A DNA stretch of 64,000 bases from Lepisosteus oculatus (Eukaryota; Chordata; Actinopteri; Semionotiformes; Lepisosteidae), in contig NC_090718.1 in NCBI RefSeq assembly GCF_040954835.1, positions 14,151,532 to 14,215,531 of the forward strand, read 5' to 3'. The position numbers were made by a program, and so were the translations under genes. Shown here one piece after another: positions 3,240 through 57,536 of the stretch. The notes beneath the pieces were generated by a model, which worked only from the letters and a program-made list of their open reading frames with translations, had not been told where the DNA came from and searched no databases. Position 1 is the stretch's first letter. Each line of letters begins with the position of its first letter.

Positions 3240-5087
3240 CATCCCTGTTTTCCTATGTTTTGAAGCTGGGATTTCTTACCCCGGAAATGGAGGCGATCAG
3301 TAAGTATAACATCTCATTTCAGCAGCTGCTTTTTATCCTTGGCTGGTGGTGGAGAACTGGGGCCTTACTGGAAAGGCACAGGACACAGGGCTGGACTGCA
3401 CCCCAGATGGGACGTCAGTGTGTCACAGGACACAGGGCTGGACTGCACCCCAGATGGGACGTCAGTGTGTCACAGGACATGCACACATGCAGGGGACAAT
3501 CTAGAGGTGCCAGTTAACCTAGCCAATATGTTGTTAGACTGTTAGAGGAAACCATGCAGCCACAGTAGAACGTGCAAACTCCACACAGAAGGTGCCCCCA
3601 GTCTCAAACCCAGGTCCCAAAAACTGTGAAACAGCAGTGCTAATCCATTACCCTATCATGACTACCTGTAACATAGTAGTTCAGGTGGGTAGCTGCGTCA
3701 GCATGCGTAGGCTGCAAAGGTACAAGTACTAGGTTTATTAATAGGTTTGGAATAAACCTATTACCTGTAACATATCCACACATCTTTTCAGATCGCTTCT
3801 CTTTTTATAACAAAGTAGCACAAAATGAGGTTTCACCAACACTAAGATCGATTTTCGCTTAGATCACCACTAGAGTGATTTTTTGCTGCTGGTGCTGGTG
3901 GATGTTTTCCCCTCTCATCCAGAAGGTTTAAACGGGGGAGTGAAGATATTTTTACTATACATATACTTCTCCCCAGCCTTGAGTTTCCTCTCCTGATCTG
4001 ATCTTTATTTTTCCCTTGCAGGTCTGCACAACTGGACAGGGTTTCTGCCCATAGCGCCTGGGATCACAGAGAATCCTGAGCCAAGCAAATCAGAACCAGA
4101 CAGTGAGTAGCATAGCCCCCCAGTCCTGTCAGTGTCCCTCAGAAGTGATGCCTTCTACAACCACTGGAAGAGCAAATATCGGCTCTCTGCTTCTTGTCAC
4201 AGTCTCGCCATTTAACACTGACAGGTGGTTTATCACATCAAACATTCACAAAAGAAACCAAAACACGCAGCTTTCTTGTGCTTTGCGGAGAAAGTTGAGG
4301 GTATCCTGTCATTCAGTTCTCCTTGAGAAGTCACTGCCCTTACTCCAGCTTTCTCACAGTACATTTGTAGACAGGAGTGTTGAGGGTGCTGGACTCATGA
4401 CTGAAAGGTGAGACCCTGCTGTTTACCACTGAGCGCAGTACTACACCCACAGTGTTCCAGTAAAATACACAGCTGGAGCAAATGTAAGTCATTTTGAAAA
4501 AGTGTCAATCAAATAAATTAGTATGTTATGAAACAGTACACTGGTATTTATAGACACACATTGCTGGACTCATTACAAATGTAGCTACTGCCAAATAAGA
4601 AGGATTTGCATTTACATGTTTTTTCCACAGACTCCCTAGTGCTTTACCTGACATTTGATGTCACCACAAATTGTACCACTGAGCCAAACACCCACAACAT
4701 TGTTAAAGCCATTGTGCAAGAGGTAAGTGATAAGAAAACATAACCATTTTCTAAAAGGTGCACCATACTAATTCGAGGACATTATGATTCGTATTTGATT
4801 TGGATGAGAAATTACGTACAGTAAGCATCGCAGTCCAGACAACAACTGCAAAAATCTATAAACCCGTATACTGTATTCAGCTGTAAATCTTACACAACAC
4901 TGAAACGCTCCACAGCAAGCGCTAATTTGGTTATTACAGTGATTGACTCACAAATGTGCATTCTCTTTCAACACAGATAAAGAACATCTTGAAGGCAGTC
5001 CTGAAGACAGAAGACTTTCAGCTGGAATACTTTGAAAGCGGAAAAGAGAATCCAGACACTAAAGCCGTAAAATGGTCAACCCTTTAA
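3240..5087 (+). CDS. Unrecognised spliced gene, 3' part (four candidate exons)
   Basis: Four segments join with matching phases: 3240-3299 (acceptor after a CT-rich tract, donor GTAAGTA), 4022-4102 (donor GTGAGTA), 4631-4722 (donor GTAAGTG) and 4977-5087, ending in TAA. The joined frame has no internal stop and encodes about 114 residues. Visible features are two or three N-glycosylation sequons (NWT, NCT, and possibly NTH, which is not a sequon), a hydrophobic strand-like run (SLVLYLTFDVTT) and a helical lysine-rich segment (IKNILKAVLKTED). That pattern suggests an extracellular or lumenal domain, possibly SEA-like, but I recognise no family. No start or signal peptide was found, so upstream exons are probably missing. 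The last exon could instead splice on at GCC|GTAAAA. It lies upstream of ccdc15 on the same strand and does not resemble the genes flanking human CCDC15. Confidence 0.4.
3375..3662 (-). repeat. tRNA-derived SINE with internal 47-bp tandem duplication
   Basis: On the minus strand this reads as the SINE family seen at 30.08 kb: cytosine-rich 'agtttgcacgttc' block, then the 'gtcccatctggggtgcagtcc' tail. The tail segment is present twice in tandem (3377-3423 and 3424-3470, 47-bp period, nearly identical). It lies in the intron after the exon ending at 3299. Confidence 0.6.
3663..3774 (+). mobile_element. Short snapback SINE-like retroelement, copy 1
   Basis: An insert of about 86 bp (3676-3761) is flanked by a perfect 13-bp direct repeat, TACCTGTAACATA, at 3663-3675 and 3762-3774. 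The insert begins GTAGTTCAGGTGGGTAGC, which resembles a tRNA box A, and contains 'gcatgcgtaggctgcaaagg'. Its 3' half folds back on itself (AGGTTTATT at about 3731 against AATAAACCT at about 3751). The long target duplication indicates LINE-type target-primed integration. Related copies lie at 41.6 and 52.7 kb. Confidence 0.7.
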
Positions 5088-26600: not shown

Positions 26601-29600
26601 GGGGCACTCCGAGAGCCGTTTCTTGCGTGCCGTGTCGCCGGGCTTAACTCCCCTTCTCTCCCCTTGTCCCTCAGAGCGAGCTCCACAGGAACTGCTCCTT
26701 TGTCATCCGTCCGCCAGACTTCAACGCCTCCAACAATGAGACGTGGTGCGACTGGGCGCCGTTCGGTAAGGCTGGCCTCCAACCCGCACCTCCTAACGCG
26801 GCATGACAGGGTGATTTCAGGCTGGTGTTGTGAGTGTCGTTCACCTGGTTACTGGGGGGCTCCCTCAGCAAGGCCGGGTGTGTCCTGAGAACTGCAGGCT
26901 TCAGCGTCTCCTGTTCCTTCTCCCCAGAAGTTTCCCTGACTTGACCTGGGTTTTTACTGTTCAGAATTTAGCGTCCAGCTCTGACCTTGCATTGAACGTC
27001 AGCATCCTCACCTATTGGTCCTGCTTGTAGTTTCCCACACATTTGTGCTGCCAATGGGCCCTGCCTCACAGCTCTGGGGGCCTGGTTTTAATTCTGGACC
27101 TAGGGTGCTGTCTATGTGAAGTTGTATGTTCTCGTGTCTGTGTGGGCTTCTCTGGGTGCTCTGGTTTCCTCCCACAGTCCAGAGATATACTGGAAGGTAA
27201 ACCGGGCTCTGGGAAGACTGGCCCTGGTGCGAGTGTGTGCATGTTTGTGTCTGTGTGCCCTGTGATGGACTGGCGTCCTGTGAAGCGGTCAGAAAATAGA
27301 TGGATGGTTTTTGCAGCTACCCCGTACCTCAGTATCAGTGGGCCATCCGTTGGAGTTTTTCTTGTAGCAGGTTTATTTCATTTTATTCAAGCATTTCACA
27401 GCTGTCCAAGCCCTCAGTGTTGCAGATTTTCTATAAAGATCGTCACGTGATGAGTAACCTCCCTTTCCCTTTTCCTCCCCCAGACCAGGACAACTACCAG
27501 AAGCTGTTCGGGGCTCTGGACAACTCCTTCCTGGTGGCCTACGCCATTGGGATGTTCATAAGGTATGGGGGGGAGGTGCTAAGAGAGTAGGGTGGAGAGC
27601 TCTTGCCCCCTGTGGGCTCTCAGTCCTTGCCCGGCGTGCAGCGGGCACTAGTGGTGTTGCCCCTGCGGGTGGCTGCGCTCGGCTTCACCCTGCCCATCTG
27701 TCTCCCCGGCAGCGGGATCTTCGGGGAGCGTCTGCCCCTGCGCTACTACCTCTCCTCGGGGATGCTCCTCAGCGGCTTCTTCACGGCCCTCTTCGGCCTG
27801 GGCTTCTACTGGAACATCCACAGCATCTGGTTCTACGTCTTCGCCCAGGTGAGGGTCTGGAGGCGAGGACGCCCACAGGGCTGGAGGGCCCTTGCCCCCC
27901 GCTGTCCAGCCCTGCGTCATGCACAGGCATCACGTGCTTGTGACGGCTTTGTGACGGCTGCCGCGACACAGGCTGGGTATCTGGATCGCACATCCTGCTC
28001 ATTTCCATGGTGCAGGGCCCTGCCTAGAGATGCAGTGGAGAAGTATGGAAAGGCTGTGTCGGTTTGCTTGCTCTCTTTAGCGAGAGGCGACGAGGGCGCG
28101 GTACAGGTCCTCATGCCTGCTGCCTCTCCCTCCAGGTGATGAACGGGCTGGTGCAGACGACCGGCTGGCCGGCAGTGGTGACCTGTGTGGGAAACTGGTT
28201 CGGAAAGGGGAAGTAAGTAAGAAGGAGCCCAGCTGAGTCAGCATCTCTCTCTCCGTCTCCGTGTCCATAAATGCTGCACGAGCAGGAGGCTGGTTTCGCA
28301 ACAGGGCCGGCCCAGGCTGTCGGGAACTCCGTGCTTCTCTTTTTCGGTCATCGGCAGTGTCGTCACCTCAGACACGTTTAAGACAGCCGTGGTGATTGCA
28401 GTGATTGAAGGAACAGTACTGTAAACACAGACCTCTGGAATTATTTTAGCGCAGTGGCACTGTCTGTGTCAGTACAAGTACTTGGGCTGCGTATTTGACA
28501 CAAACTAATTTTATTAAAATAGAAAATATGAAAACCCGTCTCTGAAGCCAATGAAGTAAATTACAGATTAAAAATGTAATTATTTTAAATTCCCAATTTT
28601 TCAGTACACACAACAGATTTCCAGGGTCTTCTGGCATACCACCTGGGGGCACTCCACATACCACCAGTGGTACGCGTACCACAGTTTGAGAACCACTGTT
28701 ATATAGCGATAGCACAGAAATAGCACTACTGGTCTTTGGCAGGCAAAAAGAGAAGGTAGCTCACCTCACACCTGTCCCATGCCGTTTCCTGCTCACCTAT
28801 AATTTTGGAGTTAAATTGTGCATGCTGGAAAACCCTCAAGGAGCTGTTCAGTGAGCTTCTTCTGATATCTGGCAGGTGGCATGGGCCCTGTCTCCCTAGG
28901 GGATAGTGAAGAAGAAACGTTCAGGGGATAAGCAGCTCTGCCTTTTACTTTGTCTGCAGGCGAGGGCTGATCATGGGCATCTGGAACTCTCACACATCCG
29001 TGGGCAACATTTTGGGGTCCTTGATTGCAGGGGTCTTTGTGTCCTCAGCCTGGGGGATGTCCTTCATCGTGCCTGGCATCATCATCGGCTTCATGGGCCT
29101 GGTCTGCTTCTTCTTCCTGGTGGAAAGTGAGTTCTCCTCAATATCCTGTCTGCATCCCGGCACCCTTAGACCGTCTACCCTTAGGGATTTTGCTTCTAAA
29201 CAAATGGAATGGAAACCTGGAATGTCTCCAGGGAACTCCTTGTTCCTGCATGAATGAGAGTTTTTGTAACCAGAAAACATTACAGTAAAGTTGCATAACT
29301 AGAAACTTAGGTTTGTGATGTACTGTCTGAACTTTTTTCCGGTACTATAAAACTAAACTTTTCAACCCTTTTACATCTTGTTAAATGTTGTGACCAACGT
29401 TTAGTTTAGGTCCAGTTATGACACTTTGAAATATCTGTGCGACCGGCAATGGAAATCCGTTTTATTATTTCTAATACCTGTTTGTCTTGTTCATTTCCAG
29501 AGCCCGAGGATGTGAATTGTGACCCTCCTCAGCATCATGTGAGTGTTGAGAGAGCGTCACTCGTCTGAGGGCGTCGTCGTGTGTGACAATAAAAGGGCGA

Positions 29601-39449: not shown

Positions 39450-41514
39450 GTAAGTAATGAAGGACAAAGTTTTTTTTTTAGGTAAAGCTACAAAAAGGCA
39501 GATCGTGTCATTTCACAATGGGCTTGTTAAGTTAATTACCCAGCAGTATCAAAAAGCAGACTCCTTGTGATCAGAAATGAATGGAAAAGCTGGCTAAAAA
39601 GTTAGCTTTGCATGTCTAAGGTCAGGATGCTTTCTTTCCACCTGCTCTGCTTCACACTGAACTTTTTTTTTTTGGTCCGTCCAGCTTTTGTATTCAGTTA
39701 ATGCATTCTAAGATTTAAAACTGCTTTGTGCATGAAGCCTTCAACAGCTGGTGATCCCAGGCTCTGCCGTGCATTGTCTTTGGGAATAAGGAAGGTTTCT
39801 TAGAAAACACAGGTATGCATAACACCTCCAGTGACAGTCATTCATTGGGTTACACTAGGTTTAGGAGCAGAAACGTAGGTGAGTAATCAAATATATAAAA
39901 AATACTGTACTGAATCTACCAGGTGATAGTGTTTTAATTGTTCATTAATTGGAAAAGTTTCGTAGGTGAAATGCAACATAAATTAGGCATGCGATGCAAA
40001 TTCTATTTTTATGGTGCAGTTTTGTGTCCTTATATCCATGACGTTATAAGACATAAAAGAGCTAAACTCATTATAATTTATTCTCCAGTGCTATCTTGGA
40101 CACAAGCAGGAGCTAATATATATGCGTGTTATGAGCATCAGCAATTGACTAAAAATATCAGAAATCCCCTCCATATCTACATAAAGCTGAAAGTCTAATT
40201 CTTGAACTGTTATCTTTAAACAAAAACAATAGAAGTACCTGTAGAATATGACCTTTCTATATGAGAAAGGAAAACACTGAAAAGAGTCGAACAACTACAA
40301 AAAGATTACAACCTTTTCACACAAGAATATAAATAAAAAACACTAGTTTTTCATTCTGACAACAATGCAAAAGCAACAATGTATTGGCTGATTTATTAAA
40401 AGTAATAAACAGTTTGTTCTGATATTATTTTTTTTGTGTGTGTTTATTTAAAGTGAATTAATTTTAAACAAAGAGTGAAAGTATTTGCATCTTGAACTCT
40501 ATGGGCTGTATGATGCCATGACTTTGGGCTCACTCCATGACTTTGTTAAGAAGGTGCATCGCTCTGATTAGAGGTGAGGGATGCTGTGCTGTCAGGTGGG
40601 ACAAATCAAGTGACAAAGAATTTGCAATCTGGGCTCTCTGTTTGTTTGTCAAAGCCCATACCCTGGGTTCTTTCAGGAAACTCCCAGGGAAGGTCATCAC
40701 ATCACTCCACTTACAAGCAACAGTGATCCAGGTGAGACGATTTATCGATTTTCAACTTGGATTCTTACGGTCTCACCCCAATTACTCTTGTTTGTACTTT
40801 TCAAAAATTCGGCAAATACTGTGGGTGGGGGAGAGGCTAGACATTAGCAAACGAAAAGCTCAACAAGGATTACAAGGATTTTGTCTTGTTTCTCTTACTT
40901 TGCTGGAGATACCTCTCAATCTCTCCGCCTAGCTGGGAGATGTATTTTTGCTGTTTGTGGCACTCTGGAGAATTCAAGTGCTGGCATGGTAACCTGTGAC
41001 CCTGTTTGAAAGCAGTTTGCTAAATCACCTCTCCAAGCCAAGCACCCAATTAACCTGCTTGTCTCCCGCACAGCGAGCACGATTCCCAGACTCTTCCAGC
41101 ACTGCAGAGCTACCCAGTGTCCGCCCATCAACTGAATACATGCATATCTAGAGTTTCCTTTTCTTTATCCTCTCTCACTGCTCTTTAGAAAGACCTCCAT
41201 CTCAGTCAGACAAGGGCAAGCCCAAATTCCTGACCTTTTCTCTTAGACTTTAGCAAATTGTTTGTTTGCTCTATTTGAGAAAAACGGTTTGCATTGAATC
41301 ATGCCCTTTAAAATTTGGAGTAAAGAGCCACTTGCAGTGCTCTGACAGAGGTAGACACTGTCGTTCCTGTTCTCCGAAGCTTTTCCGAGATCTGCGGACC
41401 TGGGTCAGGCCGTGCGTCTGAGATCCTGATTCGAAAAACCTCCCCCGGTGATCGCTTCTGTGTGGGCAGAGGAGGCTCAGGACATTCCCCAGGCTGGAAC
41501 AGGAAACAGAGGAG

Positions 41515-44500
41515 ATGGGATCTGGATCTTCCTCCTACGCACCCAAAACCGTCTATCTGGATGTAGACGGTAAAATCCAGAAGGTAATGTAGTTCAAGTA
41601 GGGAGCTGCAGCAGTAAAGGGACAAGTTAAGGTTTATTCCATGCTGAAAAGAGAAGAAAAGAAACACAATGTTTCGTCTGTGGAGCCTTCTTCGGCACAT
41701 CAACCCGGAGAACTCCCTTCTTGTCCATTCCCTTCAGGAGTCACCAGAAGAAGGCTCCACAGCCGGTTTCTTTTCTTCTCTTTTTCAGCATGGAATAAAC
41801 CTTTACATGTTCCTTTCCAGAAGGTAATTGCCATTAACCAGCTCTCCTGTGGACGGTGTAAGAATTTGTTTTTCCTGTGGTTGGTGCTGCACACTTTAAA
41901 CTTATGCTGCCGCTGTCTTTGCCAAATCCACGGATACTATGCAGCCATTTTAAAAAGCGAGCGTCGTGCATGACACATGGAGCCATCAGCGTGGTGTCTA
42001 AGCAAAGCAGTGCAGATCCTTTTGAAGCCAAAAGGGAGGTATTTTTCAGAACACTTTATTTTACACTGGAGGTCCTGTGCTAAGAAGTACCGTACAGGTT
42101 ATGGCAAACTTTAAATTATGAATGCACAAAAGCTGGAACTATCAGAATAACGGACAGGGCGCAATCTCTCGAGAAATGAAGTTTGCATTGTGGCCGAGAA
42201 TCATTGTGTCCCCCGATTAGAACATAAGTGCAGGCAGCTGTGTGGAGGAACTTGACAATGGGATTAAAGATGTTCTCTGCAGGCCAGTGGAAGGAGGGTA
42301 GCAATACAGGAGAGTGCACTGCGTCTGCTCACTTTTGTGGAAGTGCCTTGTTCAATTACTGTGTCTGTGGGCACTGAGACTCCTAGCTGATGCGCAGCAG
42401 CTTCACTGAGATGCAGAACACAGAGAATCTTGCGGAAACTACAGACAGCTGGCTTCTCTTTAAAACTATTAAATATTTTGTTCATTTAACATTTCTGTTC
42501 TCCCTGGCGGTTTCTGCCCCTGAAAAGCTCAGTTATTTCCAAAATGCCCGCTGCAGTACCACAATATGAATATCTTGTTTCAAATTTTTTTGTGTGTAAA
42601 TATCATATTCCCTCATCACTCTTTTTTTTCCTGCTGCTCACATGCGACTGTTTCTTACTAAAGCATTTGCTTCAGAAGAAATGTGTCTACAAAAGGTATT
42701 CAAATACACAGCAAGTCTGTTACTGCAGGTATGTCTGTGAACTAAGAGCACAACGTTTCCTTGAAAGTTAGCAAGATCTGAGATTTTTATCATCACACTC
42801 TGCTCATAGCTGTGTAAAGACATTAGACTAAGGTATAGTGCAGTAAATGTAATGCTAATTTTAAGGAAAGCATTCTTTTAAAGACATGCTTCACTTTTTT
42901 TCGTTTTAGGTTGTTCTCCTTTCCTTTCCTCACTTTATAAGTTCTATTTCTTATTTCACCTGCTGTGGGAAACTGATGGAAGTTGCACATTGCATGACAA
43001 TTGTAGTATCAGTGCTTTAAAAATAAACCAGGGGGAGCATGAGTCACAGGTGCTGCTGACATGAGTTGGGGTCTGTGACACCTGCTGCTAGCATGTGCAT
43101 GTTTGTCTTAGCTGAGCCCATTGTTTGTCTCAAGCTTCCTTCTCCCATAGGTGTATTCAAGCATCTGTGTACTTCTTCAGACTCTGCTGTCTTTGACCAG
43201 AGAATTGAATGTTTATTTCCATGAAACAAATTGCACAAACCTGCCTTCCGTGAACGGTTACCGTTAGAAGCGTCATAGACCTAGAAAAAACAAGCTTGTT
43301 GGTTGCTAAATTAAAATGACCCGGCTTCAAAGGAACTTCTAACAGCCCGACAGTTTAATTTGGATCTGCCAGTGAATGGTTATCAAGTTCAGGACAAAAG
43401 CATCAATTTCCATGCAAGGTGCTTTTTCACACATTCGGCATTCCATCCAATGGGGAATGAATTAGAAATCAATTGGCGCTGTTTGGCAGCCAGGTGTTTC
43501 TGTTCGATTGATATGGATATGGTAGAGTTTATGACTAATTCATTTTGTCGTTCTGCGCCTACTGATGTTATTGATGTTGTTTGCTTCAGTAAAATAACAG
43601 CGCTAGACGGGACTCTATTCCTCATCTAGTGTTAGTGCTGGGATGTCCAACAGTGGTCCTGGAAAGTCTCTTGCAGGTCATCTTTTTTAAAGATTGGCAA
43701 CACTTGTGTGCAAGGTATCTGTTCAATCAAGGGAACTCTAGTCCTCGTGAACATGCTTAGATTTTGGTCCCAGATGAATTCCACATTACATAATATACCC
43801 ACTGGAGTATTCACAATGAGATCATGAGAAACCGATGATGTAGCAATTAACCTTTAACCCCTGGTGGACTAGGGCTCTCTAGGAGCAGAGCTGAGAACCC
43901 TAAAACTGGACTAGAGGTACGAGACCTTCCCTCTTATTTCTGCAGAGCTGAGCAAAGCCTTTAATCATTGGTTTGCTGGAAGTTCTACCTCTGATCACCA
44001 GCAAGGAGGAAGAATCTTGCAGCCTTGGAGAGAGTGCGGGCTTATGTGTAGTACTGTCACAGCTGTGGTTTAACCCTTCACACTCACTCCAGCTGTTAGT
44101 TCTGTCTCATGTTGTCACAGTGACTCGCTCAAGCTATGATGTTGTAAGTGTGTGGTGCACCTCTGTAGATCACATTGTGGTGTGGTGTGCTGTGCCTTTT
44201 CAGCTATGGACTTTTTTCAGTGGTGTATTGCTGTTTTAGTGCAGGTTTGAGATCAACCCTACCACACTATCTAATATCCTTTCAGCCACTTCAATATCAA
44301 GGGCACGAGGGTCTTGGGCATGTCTCAGCAGCAGGCAGATTAATGCTTCTCTGTTCTGTCTGTTCAGGTTGTTTTCAGTCGGCACTGCAGCCCCTGTGAC
44401 ATCAAGGAGCTGCTCTGTTCCTCTTCCAATATCCCCAGGTCAGTGTCATTTCTCTGACCGAGCGCAGGTATGGACTTGTGAGGCAAAAAAGTAGACTGCT

Positions 44501-47500
44501 GAGTGCTTTAGCACTAGTCTTCACGGAAAATTTGTGGAACTTTTAAAAAATCTCCACATGAGGGAGTCTACATCCTTCATGGAAGGCTCAAATATGGTGT
44601 CTCTGGAAGACAACCATAGAGGCAACATTGTGCATGTACAGATAATAATGACACTTACTTTGGAATAGAATCTAGCTGATAGATGGGTGAAAGGGCCCTT
44701 TTATAACATTCCTCCATGAACATTTGTCACATTATTCATTTAGTGTCTCAGTAGCAACTATGGTTTTGAAGTCTGTATGATCTGAGCCTGACCTCACAGG
44801 TACTGTAGGTTCAAAGTTGTGAGTATGGAGTAAACACAAGGACTGTGCAGCAATTGTGAAAGATCACAGATCGATTTTGATCTGGCTCATGGAAAATGGC
44901 CTCTTGGTTCAGCAGACTGGCAATTGGATGGATACCTGCACTGAACTGGGCTGTTTCTCTTCACAGGAACACAGCGATCATGCTGGTGGACCAGGAAGGA
45001 GCCATTGTCTCCATCGACCCCACGATGCCCACTAACTCTCAGAGGTATGGGGTCGCTAGTTTGTCACGAAACACGGTTCTCAGATTTTTCTAAAAATGAG
45101 CTGGTAACAGCCGTTTTTCTTTGTGCAGCATTTTTCTTCTGTAAAATTTAATAGAAATAAACAGTACAGGAACCTCTGCAGCAAACAGCTGTGAATACAT
45201 CTGACCAACTGCATGCATCAGATTTATATCAAAGTGGATGTGGCACTGACTGTTTTACATTTTAACACATTTGCTCAAGAGAAAAGTGTAATTTCATTTA
45301 CTTACATTTACAAGAAGTTACAAGCATTTTTGAACGTGTCACTCTTCAGAATTAAAATTGTACTGATTCTGGGATTTCATTTGTCTTTTTCCAGCTCTCT
45401 GTACAAAGTTGTTCCTTTATCTGGTGGTCAGCTGGGAGGTAATTCTTTACCAATGCTTGTTCTCCTCAGGTACACGTGTAGGAAGAATCTCACACATGCT
45501 CTTTAAAATTTAAAATGAGTCCCGTGAAGAGTTTTTAACAAAATAAAGTTTTGATTAAAAAAATAAACACTACATATGCATGTTTACAATGAATTCACAG
45601 AACTTTCTGTTGGAACTTTTTTGGAATGTAATTCTGGGTTCTTACCATTGGTTTCGCAGAGAAGGAGGACATGTTTCAGAACGTACTGTCTCAGGTGGCC
45701 GAGCAGTTCAGCAGGTAATTCGTTCTTCTGTTGGGAGCTTCAAGGCAGAAATCGGCAACGTATGAGGGGATAAAATCTTACCCTTCTCATCCCCTGCTAC
45801 CCTCTCCTGCAAAATGCCGATGGCCTCAGTGCAGTTTCCTGCTTAATTAAAGGCTAAATCCTTGTCAGTCAAACACTGGAACTTACAACCTACTACACTG
45901 CAAGGTATTATCACCACCAATCCCAGTCGTGTGATTCATTGTTAATTGCCTCAGTTACTGTAGGTAAAGCAGGGTCTGGTTTTACTGAAGAGCTGGGGTG
46001 GACGTGCTGACTGGAGTGGAGCAATCTTGGGCTCTGTAAATCTGAGGCTTCTGTGATCTGTGTCACTGAGTGTAGTCCACTTGAGTTACTTAATTGGCCC
46101 AAAGTGGTGAAGGCTAATTTCAAAGTATCAGCTAAAGCCTTGACTTGGAGATAAATGTGAGATGTAGAAGCATGTAACCAGTGAATAAGGTATTTATCCT
46201 GATGACTCTGAAATCCCCTCATACACATCAGTCAATCAATCAATCAAAGTTTATTTAGCAAATGCACAACAATACAGCGTGCAGCAGTAATTGCTGGCAA
46301 TGAAATGTCTTTTCTGCGAGCTCACCAGGGGGAAATAAAAATAAAAGCCACAAAATTAAAAGTTACAGAGTAAGGTTACGTAATAATAGTGCAATAAAAA
46401 TTGAATTTAAAAAAACTCAATATAAATAGAATTGCTGCATATTCAGGGTGTATGGAATACATTATGTCCAAACAGTGCAATATGCAGTGTGCCAAATACA
46501 ATGGAAAACTGTATGTCCATATAACCTGCCCATTTAACAAAGATCATTAGGGTGGTTGCTGAATGTGACTGCAGCTTGGCTGTTTAGCAGTCTTATTGCC
46601 TGGAGGTAGAAGCTGTTCAGTAATCTGTTGATCTTTGACTGAATGCTTTGATACCGTTTACCGGATGGTAGGAGAGAAAACAATTTATGACTGGGATGAC
46701 TGGGGTCCTTGCTGAGTAGATATCTTGGATGTTTGGTAGCTCACAGCCTTATTGAGCTGTCCTGACTTCACCACTCTCTGCAGTACTTTGGGATCCAGGG
46801 CGGAGCAGCTCCCATACCAGACAGAGATGCAGCCAGTCAGGATACCTTCAATAGCGCACCTGTAGAAGTTGGTTTGGATATGTGACAGCATGACAAACTT
46901 CTTTAGCCTGCGGAGATAGAATAGACACTGCCGTGCTGTTTTGACCACAATGTTGACGTGGTGAGACCAGGTTAAGTCCTCTGTGCTAACTCCAGGGAAC
47001 TTAAAACTGCTGACCCTCTCCACTGCAGTCCTGTTGATGCAGAAAGGTGTGTGACCTCCTTCCTGATGTTTCCTATAATCCACAATCATCTCCTTAGTCT
47101 TACTGATGCTCAGAGAGAGGTTGTTCTCCTGGCACCATGCTGCCAGGGTTTCAACCTTCTCCCTGTACGCAGACTCCTCACCATCTGTGATCAGGCCTGT
47201 TATATCGTCCGCAGACTTAAGATAGAGTTTGAGTTATGTCTGGCAACACATGAGTAAATAAGGAGTAGAGGAGAGGGCTAACTACACAGCCTCGGGGGGG
47301 CTCCAGTGTTTGGAGTCAGCATAGAGGATATGTTGGTGCCCAGCCTCACCACTTGTGGACTACACATTCCCTGTGTCATAGTTCATATTGGTACTTTTCA
47401 GGCACAGGGCTGCTTTTCCTCTCTTTCTGTTTCAGAATCTGCACCCAACTCCTTTTTGAACCCAATTCCAGCACAATTAAAGCGTTTCTCATTTCTCTGG

Positions 47501-50500
47501 TTAATCTAAATCCAGCCTTACAAGTAAAACAAAACAGAATTGAAATTAAGACTAACACAGGGGCTGCTGGCATTGTGGATGCTTCCTAGATAAGGCTGGG
47601 TCTGTCTTGCAGGGCTTTTCGGATCAACGAGCTGAAGACAGAGGTGACTAACAGGTTGGCGATGCTGGAGAAGAGAGTGGAGTGTGAGTTTTTCTTCATT
47701 GCATAGCAGCAAAAGATTCAGCGCCGTCGGTGTACGACTGAATTGTTAACGTGTGATGTTAAGATTTCCAGCTGCAGTTAAATCCTCAGTGCATTATACT
47801 GCAAATTATCTTTGCCACAGATTCTTGTGTACTGTATTGTATTACGGATTTCCCACACTGTCTGTGTTTTTCCCCAGTTTCTGAGTGATTTACTAGACTT
47901 ACTCTAATTTTGCTGTGGCGACATCAGTGAGTGTGCTTGGCAATTAACGCACAGTAAGACTCGGGTGGACGTGGGGCAGTGAGACCAAGTGGTCAAGGCG
48001 GCGGACTCAGCATCGTGCGCCAATGCTTGTGTTTCAGTGGAGGGGCTGAAGGTGGTGGAGATCGAGAAGTGTAAGAACGACCTGAAGAAGCTGCGGGACG
48101 AGATGACGTCCAGGGGCGGGGGCAGGTGAGACCGCAGTAACCCTGGGATAGTAAGAGTGTAAGGAAGGCCATAGGCCATTCCCCGGCCACCCAGGGACCT
48201 TCTCCAGCCACTTCCTGAAAGAAAGCTGATCCAACCAGACATGCATCTATGGACTCTTGTTTGAACTCTGTCCACTGCAGTGATTTTCTTCTTGTAGCAC
48301 AGGGATCACACCTGTTTGCGATATCCTTCTTGAAGCCTGACAGGCAGGTAGTCTGCAGTAGGGACTCGACATCCGCAAATTTGCTTACTGATGAACGGGT
48401 CTGAGATGAAAGAAGAGCAGTGTGGGTTGAAACCTAGCCGGAGGTGGGCCACCCCAGATTTCCCTTTAGCTGCACAGCAGATTAGGATCCTGAGACAAAC
48501 CTGGCTAGAAAATGAGCATCTGCCCGCCATCGGCCCAAGTTCAGCTGGTCAAGCTGGTCTTGTTTTTATATTATAATGAACACTCCAGGTTCTGTGTTGG
48601 CAGAATGACAGGCTGGAGACACCTTTACAGGCTCCCTGTCAGTATTTTTGCTCTTTTAAATACAGTGGGACGTGTTAATAATAGAGGCAGAGTGAAAGTG
48701 CAAGCTGGATGCAGAGGAAAAATTTGTGTTGTTTTTATTAACTGATTGCTATACGTCTGTGATTATTGCTATTTCTTTTGGTTGATCAATGTTATTGTAA
48801 TTAACATAAAGCCAATTAAGCATTAGTACTTAAATATTCACATAAGGGAGGGTAACTCATGTTTTTTAGCCATACGTACTATATACTGTAGTACATTGAG
48901 ATGATATAGAGATGGATTGGACATATAAGAATTTGGCTATTCGCAACAGATCTCTGCAGCAAGCCCTTCCGAATGTTGAGACCCTGTTGGATTTTTAGAG
49001 TAGCTTCCATTGATTTTACTTCCATGCTTTTTGGAAAAAGCTTTCTGTTGGCTTTTTCCAACACTTTGTTACATTTGCCTGGGGAGGGGGAGGGGCTGCC
49101 AGGGTTCAAATATGACAAGGATCTCCTTGAACAGACGGGTCCCTCTCAGCAAAACCACTCACCTGGGATTCCTGCTGTTACCCCAGGACTTCCTTCTTCT
49201 GCAGGGAGCCTACAGCTGCCGTGAAGGTTGCCAAAGTTGTTAGGCACATTAGCAAATACTATAACCTATAGAGAGAAGCACATTTTCTACAACTGATTAG
49301 AAGAAACACTTCTTAAAACAAAGCGTGGTGGGAGTATGGACCAAACTGTCCATCCCTGTCGTTAAAAGCTGATACCTTCTCTTCTTTTAACAAGTGAATG
49401 AGATCCTTAGCTCACTGACTGTAGCTACTCAGACTAAACGAGGCATTAATGGACTCCTCACTCATGTAAAGATCATGGTCCATGTCGCAGGCATTTCTCA
49501 AATCTCTCAGGATCTCAGGATCATAGTGTGCTTATTCCAAAAGGACATGATTGACAACATGGATAGTTACTGCAGGAAGCAGGTGCTGTGCTTGGAGTCT
49601 TAGCACGGTCACACGCCGTTTAACTCATCGATCCCACAACTTCTCCAAGATGCTCCTAAAGGATTCCAATGAATCAGGTTTCAGAACATCGACAGAGCAT
49701 TTCTGACACATATCTTTCGCTGTATGGCCGACAGAATGCCCCCTCCCCTCTCCCCATTTCCTATGCTAATATACCTTTCATCTGGTTGTACTTATTGTAG
49801 AAAAAAAAGCTTGAGATGAAATTTTGTTGCATCATCCAAACAATTGCATGTACTGTAACTATGGTTTCCTTTGCTTCAGAGTAAACTGCCCTTGCAAATA
49901 CAACTTTTCCGACGATGGCAAGAAAATGACCCCCAGAAGAGATGTCCCCAGTTACCCCAAGGTAACATGAACTTGGGGTGTTTCTTGTGTGCCTGCTTTG
50001 TCTTGTACATAGAAAAATATAATGTATATAATGTGTGTGACTAACTGTGAATCACTGATCTGTGAGGGAAATGTTTGTGACATTCGTTTTCTTTTGGAAT
50101 TGGGCAGAAATAAATCAATACTTTGGCTCACCCTGTCCAACATGGTATTTGATTAGACTGCGGGGGTTAAGTGGCCACTGACAAGAAAAATTGTTGCAGG
50201 GGTTCGGATGTCTTGTAGACTCCTGGTCTACAAGGGCATTTCAAAGTTTGAAACAGTTACTGTCGTGAGAAGTTTAGACTCCTTCTCTAAACCAAAGGAA
50301 TGATCCACTACAGCCAGTGCTGAGCGTGCAGGAGCTCAGCTCCAGTAGCTCTCCGTATGACACTATCCATTACCTCTGACCACGGTGCCTGCACCTAATA
50401 GTGACCTGAAGAACTCAACAGGCGCGTTTACAATTTCAAAACACGGCCCCCTGTTTCCTCTCCTTGACTCCAAGGTTACATTTCCACACAAAAAAAAGAT

Positions 50501-53500
50501 CTGATCAGTTGCTCACAGTGTACCTTGAAAGTAGACTTGAAGAGTAAAACAAAGAGGACGCAGGATCTTGTGTTTGGCCAGTGTAGACTGTCAGGAGCTG
50601 AGTGGGATTAACAGGGGATGGATTTTGCATCCAAGTGTTGCAAGTGCTCAGACATTCTGAGCTCAGACTTCCTCAGAGATGAGGAGAAACAAGTTTGAGA
50701 AAGCAGTACCTTACACTCCTAAAACCCGGCTAGCAGTGGAAGAGCCTGTACCATGAACAAAGAAGAAGGTCTTGTTGACTCTTACAATTCTTCCTTTCAA
50801 AGTAGAATCACAAAAAAAACAGGTGGTCCTTTACTCTCGGAACTTGGTGCTAATTCTAGGTTCTAGGTTTTAATTTAAACTCTCTTTCATCTCTGTAAAT
50901 TCAGCTTTAATTGTGATGAACACCATTCTGCTTGAAGACCTCCTTTCCTCTTTATTCCGACAGTACACTTTATCCCAGGAAACCATCGAAGCGCTGAAGA
51001 AGCCAACATTTGACGTGTGGCACTGGGAGCACAATGAGGTGAGAATCCAGATTTCTGATCTGTCTACGATTTTGTCACTTGTGTCTTTAGTTGAACCCAT
51101 TCATGAGTGGGCAGGAGGGCTCATTTACCTAAAGTATTGTCCCATCCATCAATTCCCTAACCACTTAATCCAATTCAGGGCTGCTGGCAAGCTGAACCAT
51201 ATCCCCAGAAGGGATGGGTACCAGTCAGGATACATTATAGTGGAGACGCCAGTCCATCACAGGTCACACACACTCACACCTGTTCACCTGGGCCTGTTCA
51301 CTAACCAGTGTGTCTTTGGACTGTGAGATGAAACCAGAACACATGGAGGACACTCACTTGAAACACAGACAGAACATAAAAACTCCACACAGATAGCACC
51401 CCAGGTCCAGAGTTGAGCCCACAGCCCAGAGTGCTAGAATGCAACAATGCTAACCACTGTGCCACCATGCTGCACTTAAAGCAGTGACCCCTTTTTTAAA
51501 AAAGTTCCCTGCACCTGTTTCAAATAAATTCCCTTGAGAAAGACGGGCTTTGTCCTTGCCCTTATATTGTATGAGACCCTAATAGCACACCCCAACTCCC
51601 CTCTTTGTAATTTCCATGAGTGGCTAAAAAAACACAGAGATCCTCCTGTCGCTAATAGGGGTGTCATGTATTGTAGTGTTAGAGTTATGCTCTCCATTTT
51701 TGTTTTCAGAAGAGGAGGAGAAAAGGGGAGCTTTCTCTACGTATCTGGCACGTTTTGTGCCTTCTCTTTTGCTAGTGAAGTTTGGCTAAGATAGGACATT
51801 TGTTTCTTTTTTCCCTTTTGACATTATGGCACGGCGCTCCCCACTGGCTTGGACCCTGCGGCTCAGATGCTGAGCTGTCTGGAGTACATGTATCACGACC
51901 TGGGCCTGGTGAAGGAGTTCAACATGAACCCCATCACGCTCAAACGCTGGCTGGTAAGGAGCTGAGAGGCGATTTCAGAATTTGCGTAAGTTTAACGCGC
52001 CAGTACTGTGTGAGCTCTGAATTGCAAACCCTGCCAGAAGAACGAGGGACTTTGGTCATGGAAGCAGGGGTCTTTCATGTTGATCCAACAGCAGGAGCCC
52101 GGTCCCACTGTTGAAGATTGCTTTCTTACACTTACAGTATGCGCCTTCATCTTCAGCAGAGAGCGGTTTAACTGGTCCTGAGAACTAAAGAGAAAAAATA
52201 TGCATTTTTCTGTCATTAAGCCTTTGAGGCAACAGAACACCAAAGCAAGTGAAAGAATCTTGTTAAAATGTTCTCGATCTGCGAGATTCATTGATAGTAG
52301 CCTCTGTGACGTCTAATTCCTCAGGGTCTTGGACTTCAAAGAATAAATATGCCTATAGGTGCACAAACCACTTCTTTCGCCCATGTTTTTTTATTTGAAG
52401 CTGAGAGGAAAGGACTCATTGCAAGGGGGAAATGCTGGGAGGCTCACTGTGCTCTGCTCTGTGTCTTTGCTGTTCCAGATCAGCATTCAGGAGAATTACC
52501 GCAACAACCCCTTCCACAACTTCAGACACTGCTTCTGCGTCAGCCAGATGATGTATGGCATGATCCACCTGTGCAATCTTCAGGTGAGAGCCTGACTAGG
52601 GCTGTCACATGACATGTACTCCCCAAAACACAGAAAGATAGTTCTGCTCTCCTGCTGTTTTTTTATTTTTCTTTCAATACTGGTGGATTTCATAAGAGAA
52701 AACGTCCCTGGCTTTGCACCTGACTAGCCTCTGGTATTGAAGTAGTTCAAGCAGGGAGCTGTGTGAGCATGTGCAGGCCTCAAAGGAACAAGTAAAGGTT
52801 TATTACATGCTGAAAAAAGAAGAAGATAAGTTTTCGGTTGCCGAAGTGTTGTGTTTTTTTCCTTTGCTTTTCCTTTGTAACCTCTGGTATTGTCAGGCAA
52901 CTTTTTTCTTGTGGATATGCAGAAACAAAGCACCAAAAGTTCCTCAACGACCCAACCCTAATCTCAGCAGCCCTGCTAAAGGCAGCCATTCTCAGACTGT
53001 CTTTAGCACTATATCTTTAATAAGCAGAAACTCAAGCCCAGACTTCGCTGTTAGAAAGTGTCTGTTAGAAGCAGAAAATGTGTCATTTGTTTAAGGTCAT
53101 TGCGTGCATCAGATTCCAGATATGTCTGGAGCGCACAAAAAAACAAAACAAGCCTTGTTTGCACTGTCCAGGAGAAGCTGACCTTGACAGACATGGGCAT
53201 CCTCATGACCGCAGCAGTGTGCCATGACCTGGATCATCCAGGCTACAACAACACGTGAGTGGGCCTGACAGTACAGGGAGCCGTGCCCGTGCTCTGTTGA
53301 CCAGCATGAGGATGTGAGCCCTGTTCCCCAGAGGTATCCATAATAGAGCAACAGAGTAAGAGCCACTCCTTCCAGCAGTGATGTAGACATGTGCTTTACA
53401 TAGTGTGCATTGAAAAGCACATCCACATAGGATAGGTCATCATGCTGACTTCACTACATGTATTTTTTGGAAAGGCAAAATCACTCTCCTTATTTTGCAA

Positions 53501-56500
53501 AACTGCAGAGGGACTGTCGTAGATGAGTATCATAAATGGAAGATCCATGTGATCTGGCAACTTTGCACTGCTGTTGTCATATAAAGGCGAACAGACCGAA
53601 GGTCCCTGCATTGGCGACACGCCCACCCGTTGGCTCTCTGTCTCTAGTTACCAGATCAATGCCCGGACAGAGCTGGCCGTGCGCTACAATGACATCTCCC
53701 CCCTGGAGAACCACCACTGCGCTGTGGCCTTCCAGATCCTCTCCCAGCCTGAGTGCAACATCTTCGCCAACGTGGAGCCCGAGGTCTTCAAGCAGATCCG
53801 CCAGGTGAGGGCAGCCGTCTTTCCACAAGCCTCTCCATCCCGGGACAACGGATCCCATCGCCGGCTCGCTCGCATGCTCATCCAGGGAGGGACCTACCTG
53901 GGAACGGACGAGAGCCCCACCATTCGGAACTGGCACAGCACCTTATTGATCACTGCCCTTCTCATTCACATTACCAATAATGGGCAATCATTCGTTTTCC
54001 TAAGATTCCCTTGATGGAAACATGACATTAAATCTTAAGAATAGCTACAAGCTTGAGGCTATTTGGCCCCTCTAGCCCTTTTAGTAGTTAGTAGATGATT
54101 GTTCCAAGAATCTCATTCAATAGGATTCACCAACATGGCTGGGCAGCTTGTTACATACTCCCATCACTCTTTGTGTAAAATGGTGCCTCTTTGTAGAGTT
54201 TCTAACAAAGCTTTGGGTGGGATGGTAACAACCAAGTTCAATTAGACTGTCAGTCATTTGTAATAAATCTTGACGTAATTTCCTCGCCTAAACACTATAA
54301 ATACTACACACAATCCCCTTCTCTCCCTCACATACTGTACATTATTTTGCAACCCTCCTCTGACCCAGCTCCTCCTCTGCAGCTGCCCCTTAGTCACTCC
54401 TCACTCTGCAGGGGGGTCCCAGCCAGGAGGTCAGCTCACAGCCAAGTGGGCTCAGCCAAATTTTCACTAAATACTCCATAATCTTTTCAGGACACCTTAT
54501 TCTCGCACTTTCAAAATGCACTTCCCCGTAATTTTCATTTGTGTCCTCTTCGGGGTCCACTTTGTCAGTGGTTTGTTTGTGTATCAGGTCCCCTTTTGCA
54601 GTCTTCTAAAATAAGTAGATGTTAAATTAAAGAAGATGAACAGTTTGATCTTCTCATAATTTATTCTGTGACAAATGTTTACACCACCTGGGAAAGAAAG
54701 GAATTGAGAATAATTCCTCAAAGATCTCCAAGATTTGTGGATAATATTCTGCTTTTGATTTGATTTATTTTTGTTATAGAACAGCACAATGAAACGCACA
54801 TGTATAAAAGCTTACTGATTTATTTGCCCTCGCAGGCCATAATCACGCTGATCTTGGCCACTGACATGGCCCGGCACGGCGAGATACTGGACTCCTTCAA
54901 ACAGAAGGTCGACAACTTTGACTTCACCAACGAGGAGCACGTGACCTGCGTACGTACAGCACAGGACTCAGTGTTTATTGTATCCAGTACTGACAGCTGG
55001 TGTTATTATGTGGGTCAAACAGAATCTCATTGAAGGACATTTTGCAATATCTTTACCTCTTGCAGTTACGGCCCAGATCCTTTATTTCAACTCTGTCTTT
55101 GTGTAACAGTTAAAAGGAGGTAGCACTGGACTCCCAGTTGGTATTAGTCATGGGACACTGAGTGCTGCATCATGACGTGTTTTCTATTTAGGACTGTTTT
55201 CTTGGTGGTTGTTCTTGTAACAGAAAAGTGGGATGCCGAACATGCCAGACATATTCTGGCAGGGGGTGGTACGCAGGTGAGGGCAGGGGGCGGAGGCAGT
55301 GCCTGGCTGGGTTGAAAAGGTCGGTTGTGCTTCTCCCCCGTCCAGCTGAAGATGGTGCTCATCAAGTGCTGTGACATCTCCAACGAGGTGAGGCCGACGG
55401 AGGTGGCCGAGCCCTGGGTGGACTGCCTGCTGGAGGAGTACTTCATGCAGGTCAGTGCGTCCCGACGGACCTTCCTTCCTGCGGCCTCTCTCTTCCGAGC
55501 ACTTTCAAAACCAGGAATGGGACAGAGCCGAAATCCTAACCGGCCGTGGCATCAAGACGAAATCGTGCTCTCTAAGGAGAGTGGGTGCTCAGGATCTGAA
55601 GTCTGTTTTGGGAGATTTTTTTTCATTGTGCTACTTGTTAGGTGACCTATGTGGCATCTTGACAGCCTCTATTTCTACACACTGCCTTCTGTACAGAGTG
55701 AGTATTAGGATTCTATAGTGTGTGTTTCAATGCCTTGGTTGTGTGCTGCTCAGGGCATTTCAACAAAAATGCTTTTAAAAGCTCTTCTGGCACAGAACTC
55801 TGACCATGAACATCTGCTGCAGACCCGGAGTTTTCCGCATCAGCAATATTTATGTCTTACTACTTAGTTGGTGTACGCAGAGGCTCACAACACCTTGGCT
55901 GTTCTGGGCCTCATCTCGGGGTATCGTCTGTATGCATCTCACTCTGTTTTCCTGATTTGCGGCAGAGTGACCGGGAAAAGTCAGAGGGGCTCCCAGTGGC
56001 TCCCTTCATGGACCGGGATAAGGTGACCAAGCCCACAGCGCAGATCGGCTTCATCAAGTTTGTCCTGATCCCCATGTTCGAAACTGTCATGAAGGTGCGT
56101 GGCGTGAAAGACAGTGGGATACCTCTTTCGCTGCTGCACACTACCCAGAGTGCTGCAGCAAGAGCTGGCAGGGACAGATGCTGACGTCACTCTCGCACTA
56201 TGGAAGAAAATACTGATTGGACTCGTTGGCCTGGTTTAGCTTTACCCATCCTAGCAGCGGCACCAGCATTAAGTCAAAAATACTTTTCTTTACAAGTGAA
56301 ACACCTTCACCAGAGAAACGTCAGACGCAGACTGCCGGGCGTTTCTGCTGGCTGTAACTGGCAGTAAACGCTTCCATGTGCTTCCCACGGTTTTAAGAAA
56401 AAACTCCTCAAAACATTTGAGCAAACGGCTCCTCCGGCCCCTGCTCACCGCGTCCTTTCTGTCCCGCCTGCTCCCGGGCAGCTGTTCCCGCAGATCGAGG

Positions 56501-57536
56501 AGATCATGGTGCAGCCCCTGCGCGACTCCCGCGACCACTACGAGGAGCTGAAGCAGATCGACGACGCCATGACCGAGGTAGCCCCCCCTCCTCGCCACCG
56601 CCGTCGCCCTCCTCCGTACTGCAGTGAGGCCAACGGCTCCACTGCCCGCCCCTTCTGTGTAGCATTGCGACCCATAGAGAGTGGAGGGATTTTTTATGTG
56701 CTCTATGTACATGTACATTGGGATTATTCACACTGTTCTCTCAGGCAGTACAATAAACACCACTTTCACACAATGTGCACAGGACAGAAAACTGTAATAA
56801 ATAATGATCGCGCACAACGTAGCACAACGACACACAGCGGGTATTCCAGAGCAATAAGCACAATGAACACCAAGGACAACAGATATGTGGCAAAGTGCAG
56901 AGTGCAGAAGTGCACTGAATTCTGAAGATCTGTGCAATTAGCTGCTCCTGACGTGTACTGCCATAGGACAGACACTGTTCTTAAGCCTAGTGGTCCGTGC
57001 TTTAGTGGTAGTGATACAGCTTTCTAGAGCTCATGGGGGGAGAACAGTTTGTGACTGGGATGGCTGGGATCCTGACTGATGGATCAGGCTTTATTGTGAC
57101 AGCAGATGCTGTGGATCTTGCTGATTAATGGTAAGTCAGTTTGCAGGGCTTCTGCTATTACTTTTATAACGTAACATCGTCAATGCGGTGACATGTTCCA
57201 AAAAAACCTTGTTTGTCACATCCTGACATCAGCACGCGTAGCGGAGGTGAACTGCATTGTGGGTGCACTTCAGGTCCAGCCTGACATTTGTAAACAGGTG
57301 GTAAAACGTTTTCTTCCTTCACAGTAACGGTTCTTTATGCCCACTTTCAATGCACTCACATTTCCATGTCTGAGCCAACAACCTGACCGTGTCTCTCCTG
57401 GCCTGAACTGAAAGAACAGGCTGAAAGAACAGGTAATGTGAGTGACCCACATGCTAACATAAAGGTGTGTCTTTTGTTCTACGAGGCGCAGAAGAAAAAA
57501 ACTGAAAATATGTCATTAGGAGGGAAGAAGAAGTAG
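41515..57536 (+). CDS. pde9a: PDE9-type high-affinity cGMP phosphodiesterase
   Basis: Eighteen coding exons join to 1560 nt, 519 aa: 41515-41583, 44368-44438, 44967-45044, 45395-45438, 45660-45714, 47613-47683, 48038-48125, 49880-49961, 50964-51038, 51867-51953, 52479-52583, 53172-53254, 53648-53804, 54836-54949, 55346-55450, 55966-56094, 56482-56577 and 57486-57536. The enzyme hydrolyses cGMP to GMP. The start [19 protein letters not shown] is typical of PDE9A. The catalytic domain (about residues 200-500) shows HNFRHCFC, the metal-binding [19 protein letters not shown] with the second metal aspartate, EEYFMQ (PDE9 pocket tyrosine) and TAQIGFIKF with the nucleotide-binding glutamine. All expected active-site residues are present. 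Exons 5-7 form a helical linker. The N-terminal exons 2-4 differ noticeably from mammalian PDE9A, and the C-terminus is short and ends in three lysines. It may be PDE9A itself or a retained ohnolog. Confidence 0.93.
41576..41828. mobile_element. Snapback retroelement inserted at the PDE9 exon 1 splice donor, copy 2
   Basis: A 227-bp insert (41589-41815) is flanked by a perfect 13-bp direct repeat TCCAGAAGGTAAT at 41576-41588 and 41816-41828. The first repeat spans the end of coding exon 1 and its donor (CAGAAG|GTAAT). The insert starts GTAGTTCAAGTAGGGAGC like copies 1 and 3. It then consists of two arms of about 65 bp in inverted orientation: 'ggtttattccatgctgaaaa' to 'gtggagccttcttc' on the left, and their reverse complement from about 41742 to 41806. 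A loop of roughly 45 bp separates them. RNA from it should form a long hairpin. Confidence 0.8.
46229..47320 (-). mobile_element. L2-like LINE, 3' portion, degenerate
   Basis: Reading the minus strand from about 47320, the translation gives the C-terminal half of a non-LTR reverse transcriptase: a degenerate ADD catalytic box ([14 protein letters not shown]), then [33 protein letters not shown] and [20 protein letters not shown] frame break occurs near the end. The 3' UTR finishes in an ATTG-type microsatellite (AATCAATCAATCAA on the + strand, 46231 on). The 5' part is absent. It lies in PDE9 intron 5. Confidence 0.85.
51138..51477 (-). mobile_element. tRNA-derived SINE in PDE9 intron 9
   Basis: The minus strand begins at 'gcagcatggtggcacagtgg' (box A type) near 51477, passes through a central 'gtgtggagtttttatgttct' block and ends in 'gtgatggactggcgtctcca' and 'ggattaagtggttaggga'. 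Order and content match the 30.08 kb copy. Confidence 0.7.
52728..52892 (+). mobile_element. Snapback SINE-like retroelement family, copy 3
   Basis: An insert of 141 bp lies between perfect 12-bp direct repeats CCTCTGGTATTG (52728-52739 and 52881-52892). It starts AAGTAGTTCAAGCAGGGAGC, contains 'gagcatgtgcaggcctcaaa' and 'aaaggtttattacatgctga' as in copies 1 and 2, and has a purine-rich then pyrimidine-rich 3' part with weaker inverted symmetry. It lies in PDE9 intron 11. Confidence 0.7.
54030..54270 (+). repeat. Unclassified dispersed repeat, copy 2
   Basis: It shares the 'ctttgtgtaaaa..tgcctct' block and flanking pattern with the repeat at 38.1 kb in the same orientation. No terminal structure was found. 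It lies in PDE9 intron 13. Confidence 0.4.
56690..57125 (-). mobile_element. LINE 3'-end fragment related to the 46 kb copy
   Basis: The phrase 'acagtttgtgactgggatgg' followed by 'ctgggatcctgactgat' matches 'acaatttatgactgggatga' and 'ctggggtccttgctgag' in the 46.2-47.3 kb element. The remainder is a long AT-rich 3' UTR. It sits in the last intron of the PDE9 gene. Confidence 0.6.

What the first reader, a model, noticed from the sequence alone, without database searches (positions are those of the whole stretch)
41576..41828. A retroelement inserted exactly at the PDE9 exon 1 splice donor and duplicated it
The 13-bp target duplication TCCAGAAGGTAAT contains the last five coding bases of exon 1 plus the GTAAT of the donor. 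The gene therefore has two donor copies 240 bp apart (41584 and 41824) with the element between them. The upstream donor now continues into element sequence (GTAATG), while the downstream copy keeps what was probably the ancestral GTAATT. If the downstream donor were used, the frame would hit TAG three codons after exon 1, so the upstream donor must dominate for a functional protein. A transposon that copies a splice site and supplies the new intron start is a clear case of intron-boundary remodelling.
Basis: partly seen in the sequence, partly recalled or inferred. Interest (0 to 1): 0.75.

Follow-up and report, generated by a model that had tools for sequence, protein, structure and literature searches.

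The report
Retroelement duplicated a gene's splice donor
In this fish-like genome a short hairpin-shaped piece of a common jumping element landed on the end of the first exon of the PDE9A gene and copied the splice signal there; this is a tidy example of a known kind of event, and sequence alone does not show which of the two copies the cell uses.

Summary
TCCAGAAGGTAAT lies at 41576-41588 and 41816-41828, flanking a 227-bp insert across the end of PDE9A exon 1 (41515-41583) and its GT donor. PDE9A is otherwise readable; exon 2 (44368) joins in phase 0. The insert belongs to a high-copy family: 40 scored places of 3395 candidates. Flanking duplications score at least 10 in 12 of 33 copies, against 0 of 132 swapped controls. 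29 of 42 copies are head-to-head inverted; 23 of those 29 have a ~40-bp tail on exactly one arm. Penelope-like elements (PLEs) are described with this anatomy; the coding evidence is only a motif. Use of the upstream donor is probable, since retention gives V-M-stop, but unproven. Corrections: GT and +1 to +5 are host sequence, the element supplies +6 onwards. An acceptor inside the insert offers a third route (35-nt microexon, frameshift), though it is paired in the predicted hairpin, which also partly pairs the donors. No empty site was found: one copy of the locus in the assembly, no related fish held. Ordinary in kind.

The parts
41515..41583 (+). PDE9A exon 1 coding part, [23 protein letters not shown], ends in phase 0
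41576..41588 (+). target-site duplication, upstream copy, holds donor AAG|GTAAT (GT at 41584)
41589..41815 (-). 227-bp palindromic Penelope-like insert; the family's fixed end (read as the 3' end of the element) lies at 41589, so its sense strand would be the window's minus strand
41589..41615 (-). 'tail' part of the tailed arm (unit positions 1-40, with 13 bp missing in this copy)
41616..41695 (-). rest of the tailed arm (pseudo-LTR-like unit)
41696..41741 (.). 46-bp spacer at the head-to-head junction
41742..41815 (+). inverted arm without tail
41766..41788 (+). pyrimidine-rich tract plus CAG inside the insert, possible cryptic acceptor; 22 of 23 bases paired in the predicted hairpin
41789..41823 (+). 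35-nt microexon that would result from the internal acceptor and the downstream donor (frameshift); holds AATAAA at 41794-41799
41816..41828 (+). target-site duplication, downstream copy, holds donor AAG|GTAATT (GT at 41824), the inferred ancestral donor context
44368..44438 (+). PDE9A exon 2, [24 protein letters not shown], joins exon 1 in phase 0

Best explanation
A truncated, snap-back (head-to-head inverted) copy of a Penelope-like retroelement inserted into the ancestral exon 1/intron 1 junction of PDE9A (TCCAGAAG|GTAATTGCC), in antisense orientation to the gene, and made a 13-bp target-site duplication. Shown by sequence: the duplication, the element's anatomy and family, and an otherwise readable PDE9A. 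Inferred: that the empty site carried one donor; that the upstream host-derived donor (AAG|GTAATG) is now used, so that the insert and the second donor are simply the first part of intron 1; and that the hairpin hides the insert's own acceptor and AATAAA. Use of the downstream donor alone would give V-M-stop and probably decay of the transcript.
For: Exact 13-bp repeat at the ends of the insert. The insert's left end is the fixed end GTAGTTCAAG of a family with 3395 first-look candidates in the host genome, of which 40 places were scored and gave 101 matching pieces, many of them the same place on both strands. 12 of 33 copies have flanking duplications scoring at least 10 (10 to 16 bp) against 0 of 132 controls; the two other copies in the window each have a 12-bp one (by eye). 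29 of 42 copies head-to-head inverted, 0 of 42 tail-to-tail, 13 of 42 single arms; 23 of 29 with one tailed and one tail-less arm. PLEs are described with inverted pseudo-LTRs, most often head-to-head, palindromes at the junction, duplications of 8, 9 or 10 bp in named cases, and an optional 31-bp tail on one of the inverted pseudo-LTRs (PMC3846280, passages); in Anolis the tail corresponds to the stretch between two reverse-transcription start sites (PMC11167929, main-text section read). A decayed frame beside the unit in L049 reads NLIYSCRKCPAIYFGETGKRLGDHFREL; 25 residues of its C-terminal part recur at 56% in L050. PDE9A segments found from 41515 to 56580 on +, one exon matched to PDE9A structures at 1.6e-12. 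Read-through stop.
Against: No empty site seen; no RNA. The GIY-YIG-like fragment found no Pfam or NCBIfam family, only chance-level PDB matches (E 0.38 and up) and a weak PHROGs family of unknown function (E 0.23); its naming rests on motif recall. Rfam found no hammerhead ribozyme, which PLEs often carry. 21 of 33 copies scored under 10 in the duplication test, and 8 of 41 could not be tested. The copies were the best matches to a palindromic query, so the share of inverted ones is biased upwards, and the limits for 'tail' and 'no tail' were set after seeing the data. Some published PLE copies lack a duplication (PMC3846280). By +6 identity (T commoner than G, recalled) the downstream donor is slightly the better; by simple U1 pairing the upstream one is (-8.4 against -6.6 kcal/mol). 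In the predicted fold the upstream donor is paired at 6 of 8 bases, mean pairing probability 0.59 against 0.39 for the downstream one.
Confidence: 0.85

Rival explanations
1. The insert is a SINE or a DNA-type miniature (MITE/foldback) and not a Penelope-like fragment; the donor duplication is the same.
For: Short, non-coding, high-copy, palindromic; Pfam does not name the adjoining frame.
Against: Duplication length varies from 10 to 16 bp among the 12 clear cases, which does not suit DNA transposons; the two arms differ by an optional tail in 23 of 29 inverted copies; junction spacers differ between copies, which suggests that inversions arose separately; no tRNA or other Rfam family at gathering score in the window.
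Confidence: 0.1
2. The downstream donor, or both donors with the internal acceptor, is used: exon 1 is followed by the 35-nt microexon in some transcripts, giving a frameshifted or poison isoform of PDE9A.
For: The internal tract has 20 of 22 pyrimidines against 17 of 22 at the exon 2 acceptor; the downstream donor keeps GTAATT and is less paired in the predicted fold than the upstream one (0.39 against 0.59).
Against: 22 of 23 bases of the acceptor tract are paired in a hairpin of -119.7 kcal/mol, z -12; retention gives V-M-stop and the microexon shifts the frame.
Confidence: 0.15
3. The two 13-mers are a chance or older tandem repeat and the element entered between them.
For: No empty site is available to exclude it.
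Against: The repeat abuts the family's fixed end with no gap, and 0 of 132 swapped controls give even 10.
Confidence: 0.02

Closest known systems
Penelope-like elements with inverted pseudo-LTRs (Adineta vaga Pen2, PMC3846280; Anolis Poseidon PAc, PMC11167929)
   Same: Head-to-head inverted terminal units, palindromic junction, target duplications, optional tail of 30-40 bp on one arm, AC-rich element end (CTACTTGAACTAC here, by eye).
   Different: Here mainly short non-coding snap-back copies were examined; tail near 40 bp; duplications 10-16 bp against 8, 9 and 10 bp in the cases named; no hammerhead match; reverse transcriptase not found in the DNA held.
Introners (PMC9860276, passages)
   Same: A splice donor recruited from a target-site duplication, with the mobile element lying in the intron.
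   Different: No new intron: intron 1 of PDE9A evidently existed, its acceptor lies 2.8 kb away, and the element extends it. Single event here; a retroelement, whereas most introner families described look DNA-based.
Canine Merle (PMEL) SINE insertion at an intron/exon boundary (PMC7349775, start of abstract in listings)
   Same: Retroelement at a splice boundary.
   Different: At the boundary of an intron with the next exon, different element, visible phenotype.

Membership tests
Penelope-like element (PLE) | short target-site duplication | tested here: met
   13 bp here; 12 of 33 copies score at least 10, 0 of 132 controls
Penelope-like element (PLE) | pseudo-LTR units, often in head-to-head inversion | tested here: met
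   29 of 42 inverted head-to-head, 0 tail-to-tail, 13 single; sample biased towards palindromes
Penelope-like element (PLE) | optional 30-40-bp tail at one arm | tested here: met
   23 of 29 inverted copies have one tailed and one tail-less arm (limits set); 6 of 29 do not fit
Penelope-like element (PLE) | GIY-YIG endonuclease coding part | tested here: inconclusive
   motif-like decayed frame in L049, 25 residues shared with L050; no Pfam or NCBIfam match
Penelope-like element (PLE) | telomerase-like reverse transcriptase | not tested
   genome searches for longer copies did not complete
Penelope-like element (PLE) | hammerhead ribozyme (frequent, not universal, so not counted as defining) | tested here: not met
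   no Rfam hammerhead match in 41400-42000 up to E 10, in the window at gathering score, or in 17 loci up to E 1; some copies show CTGAAGA..GAAAC, a likeness seen by eye only
Introner | insertion creates a new intron within an exon | tested here: not met
   the junction is the exon 1/exon 2 boundary expected from human PDE9A (boundary recalled) and the acceptor is 2.8 kb downstream
tRNA-derived SINE | tRNA-like head | tested here: not met
   no tRNA match by Rfam; ARAGORN not run

The most novel reading that the evidence does not exclude
The insert is a ready-made but self-silenced gene trap: on the gene's strand it carries an acceptor and an AATAAA folded into its own hairpin, between two copies of the donor, while the element's first bases (GTAG) give the upstream donor a bulged but stronger pairing with U1. 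PDE9A would then have a structure-controlled poison exon in this lineage, and other copies of the family could do the same in other genes. Against it: the donors are themselves partly paired in the predicted fold and nothing is known of the RNA.
Probability: 0.08. Interest if true: 0.6.

Novelty: new member of a known kind. Interest (0 to 1): 0.3.

Why it matters
It is a clean natural experiment in donor choice: two donors with identical bases from -8 to +5, 240 bp apart, differing from +6 on, with a stop between them. It also shows that a Penelope-like insertion can straddle a splice junction without evident loss of the gene. Such events are expected now and then: with roughly 200,000 donors (recalled figure), about 8 suitable positions each (my estimate) and 1.2 Gb, about 0.13% of insertions would do this, that is about 5 for the 3395 candidates before selection.

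Tried and rejected
Hammerhead ribozyme at the unit: Rfam gave none; the microRNA-family and other matches listed there (MIR6024, MIR848, MIR529, sraA, MEG8_1 and others) are all below gathering score, the microRNA ones being what a long hairpin gives, and were set aside. Naming the GIY-YIG-like frame by profiles or solved structures: no useful match. Empty site: the exon-1 peptide and the 289-bp upstream flank each have one match in the assembly, the window itself, so neither a second haplotype nor a paralogue with this exon was seen. A paper on bulged U1 pairing, PMC3360564, is not held; the review PMC9311317 (passages) says such registers exist and go with alternative donor use. Of the 40 loci fetched by place, L048 holds no copy (fetched in error) and was dropped; 8 of 41 copies had no recognisable GTAG end and were left out of the duplication test. 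Two minus-strand matches of the PDE9A search (E 0.80 each) were set aside; several acceptor positions typed and donor positions were not true exon ends and are not used. In print: no paper on a PLE at a splice donor was seen among the rows listed (searches showed 10 of 15 and 12 of 16); one search found none.

Full report
The repeat and the gene. The 13-mer TCCAGAAGGTAAT occurs at 41576-41588 and 41816-41828. Exon 1 of PDE9A runs from the ATG at 41515 to AAG at 41583, and each 13-mer holds AAG|GTAAT. The only stop in them lies where one alignment ran past its exon, and two minus-strand matches at E 0.80 were set aside. One catalytic exon (52500-52583) matches PDE9A structures at E 1.6e-12. Exon 2 starts at 44368 after CAG and ends at 44438; exons 1, 2 and 3 join to an open, human-like N-terminus. 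The peptide of exon 1 and the upstream flank each gave one match in the 1.2-Gb assembly.

The insert. The search with 41576-41828 had 3395 first-look candidates in the host genome; 40 places were scored and gave 101 matching pieces, many on both strands of one place. I fetched the 39 scored places outside the window and added three copies in the window: this one, 52740-52880 and 3676-3762. In 33 of 41 copies with a recognisable GTAGTTCAAG end (the 3676 copy was not in this test), 12 have a flanking repeat scoring at least 10; 0 of 132 pairs with swapped flanks do. Those 12 run from 10 to 16 bp. The copy in PDE9A differs from the majority sequence of the unit at 7 of 105 aligned positions and lacks 13 more, so it is unlikely to be recent; the two 13-mers are still identical.

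What the element is. Of 42 copies, 29 consist of two arms in head-to-head inversion, none tail-to-tail, and 13 of one arm. The query was itself palindromic, so the proportion is biased. Junction spacers range from -5 to 108 bases (the 108 of L035 may join two elements), which suggests that inversions arose separately. Arms mostly end at one of two places: of 58 arms, 27 at unit position 1-7, 26 at 33-47, 5 elsewhere. In 23 of 29 inverted copies one arm ends at the first and the other at the second; 6 do not fit (limits set after seeing the data). This resembles the optional tail of Penelope-like elements. In Adineta vaga a 31-bp tail is optionally present on one of two inverted pseudo-LTRs; copies with 8-, 9- and 10-bp target duplications, and some with none, are described; the arrangement is most often head-to-head with palindromes at the junction (PMC3846280, passages). 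In Anolis the tail corresponds to the stretch between two reverse-transcription start sites (PMC11167929, main-text section). Beside the unit in L049 a decayed frame reads NLIYSCRKCPAIYFGETGKRLGDHFREL...GHDHTDLSVYVLK, which by recall looks like a PLE GIY-YIG endonuclease; 25 residues of it recur in L050 at 56%. Pfam and NCBIfam had no match, so this is a lead. No hammerhead was matched.

What it did to the splice site. By the logic of target duplication the empty site read TCCAGAAG|GTAATTGCC. After insertion the upstream donor reads AAG|GTAATGTAG and the downstream one AAG|GTAATTGCC. GT and +1 to +5 are host bases in both; the element contributes from +6. Reading from exon 1 into the insert gives V-M-stop, so the upstream donor is the likelier to be used if the gene makes protein from this exon. 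Donor strength does not decide: T at +6 favours the downstream site (recalled frequencies), while a simple U1 duplex favours the upstream one, -8.4 against -6.6 kcal/mol, through a bulged U at +5 and GTA from the element. Bulged registers are known and go with alternative donor use (PMC9311317, passages). In the predicted fold the upstream donor is paired with bases beside the downstream one (6 of 8 bases; mean pairing probability 0.59 against 0.39), which speaks mildly against the upstream site.

The inverted arm holds GTTTCTTTTCTTCTCTTTTTCAG (41766-41788), with 20 of 22 pyrimidines against 17 of 22 at the exon 2 acceptor, followed by AATAAA at 41794. From there to the downstream donor is a 35-nt microexon that would shift the frame. 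The RNA of 41570-41840 folds into a hairpin of -119.7 kcal/mol, z -12, none of 200 shuffles reaching it, with 22 of 23 bases of that tract and all of AATAAA paired. Whether the hairpin silences them is untested.

Verdict. A real donor duplication by what is most likely a Penelope-like snap-back insertion. The kind of event is known: donors recruited from target duplications are described for introners (PMC9860276, passages), though here no new intron arose. A rough estimate gives several such insertions per genome before selection. What is open is which donor is used.

Noticed in passing
window 52740-52880 +: Second copy of the same element in PDE9A, about 160 bp downstream of a catalytic exon, with 12-bp duplication CCTCTGGTATTG on both sides.
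   Followed up: partly
window 3676-3762 +: Third, very short snap-back copy with 12-bp duplication ACCTGTAACATA at 3664-3675 and 3763-3774 (read by eye; part of the second copy also resembles the element's arm).
   Followed up: partly
window 27603-28139 +: A 43-residue piece of this frame matches the sugar-phosphate exchanger SLC37A2 structure (E 2e-17); upstream of PDE9A on the same strand, so probably SLC37A1, the neighbour in human (recalled).
   Followed up: partly
window 46685-47089 -: Frame that looks like the end of a LINE reverse transcriptase (by recall); Pfam gives ALKBH8_N, E 1.9e-5.
   Followed up: no
unit of the family, e.g. window 41766-41799: The unit carries a pyrimidine tract with CAG followed by AATAAA (this copy and the majority sequence), so palindromic copies can offer an acceptor and a polyadenylation signal on both strands.
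   Followed up: partly
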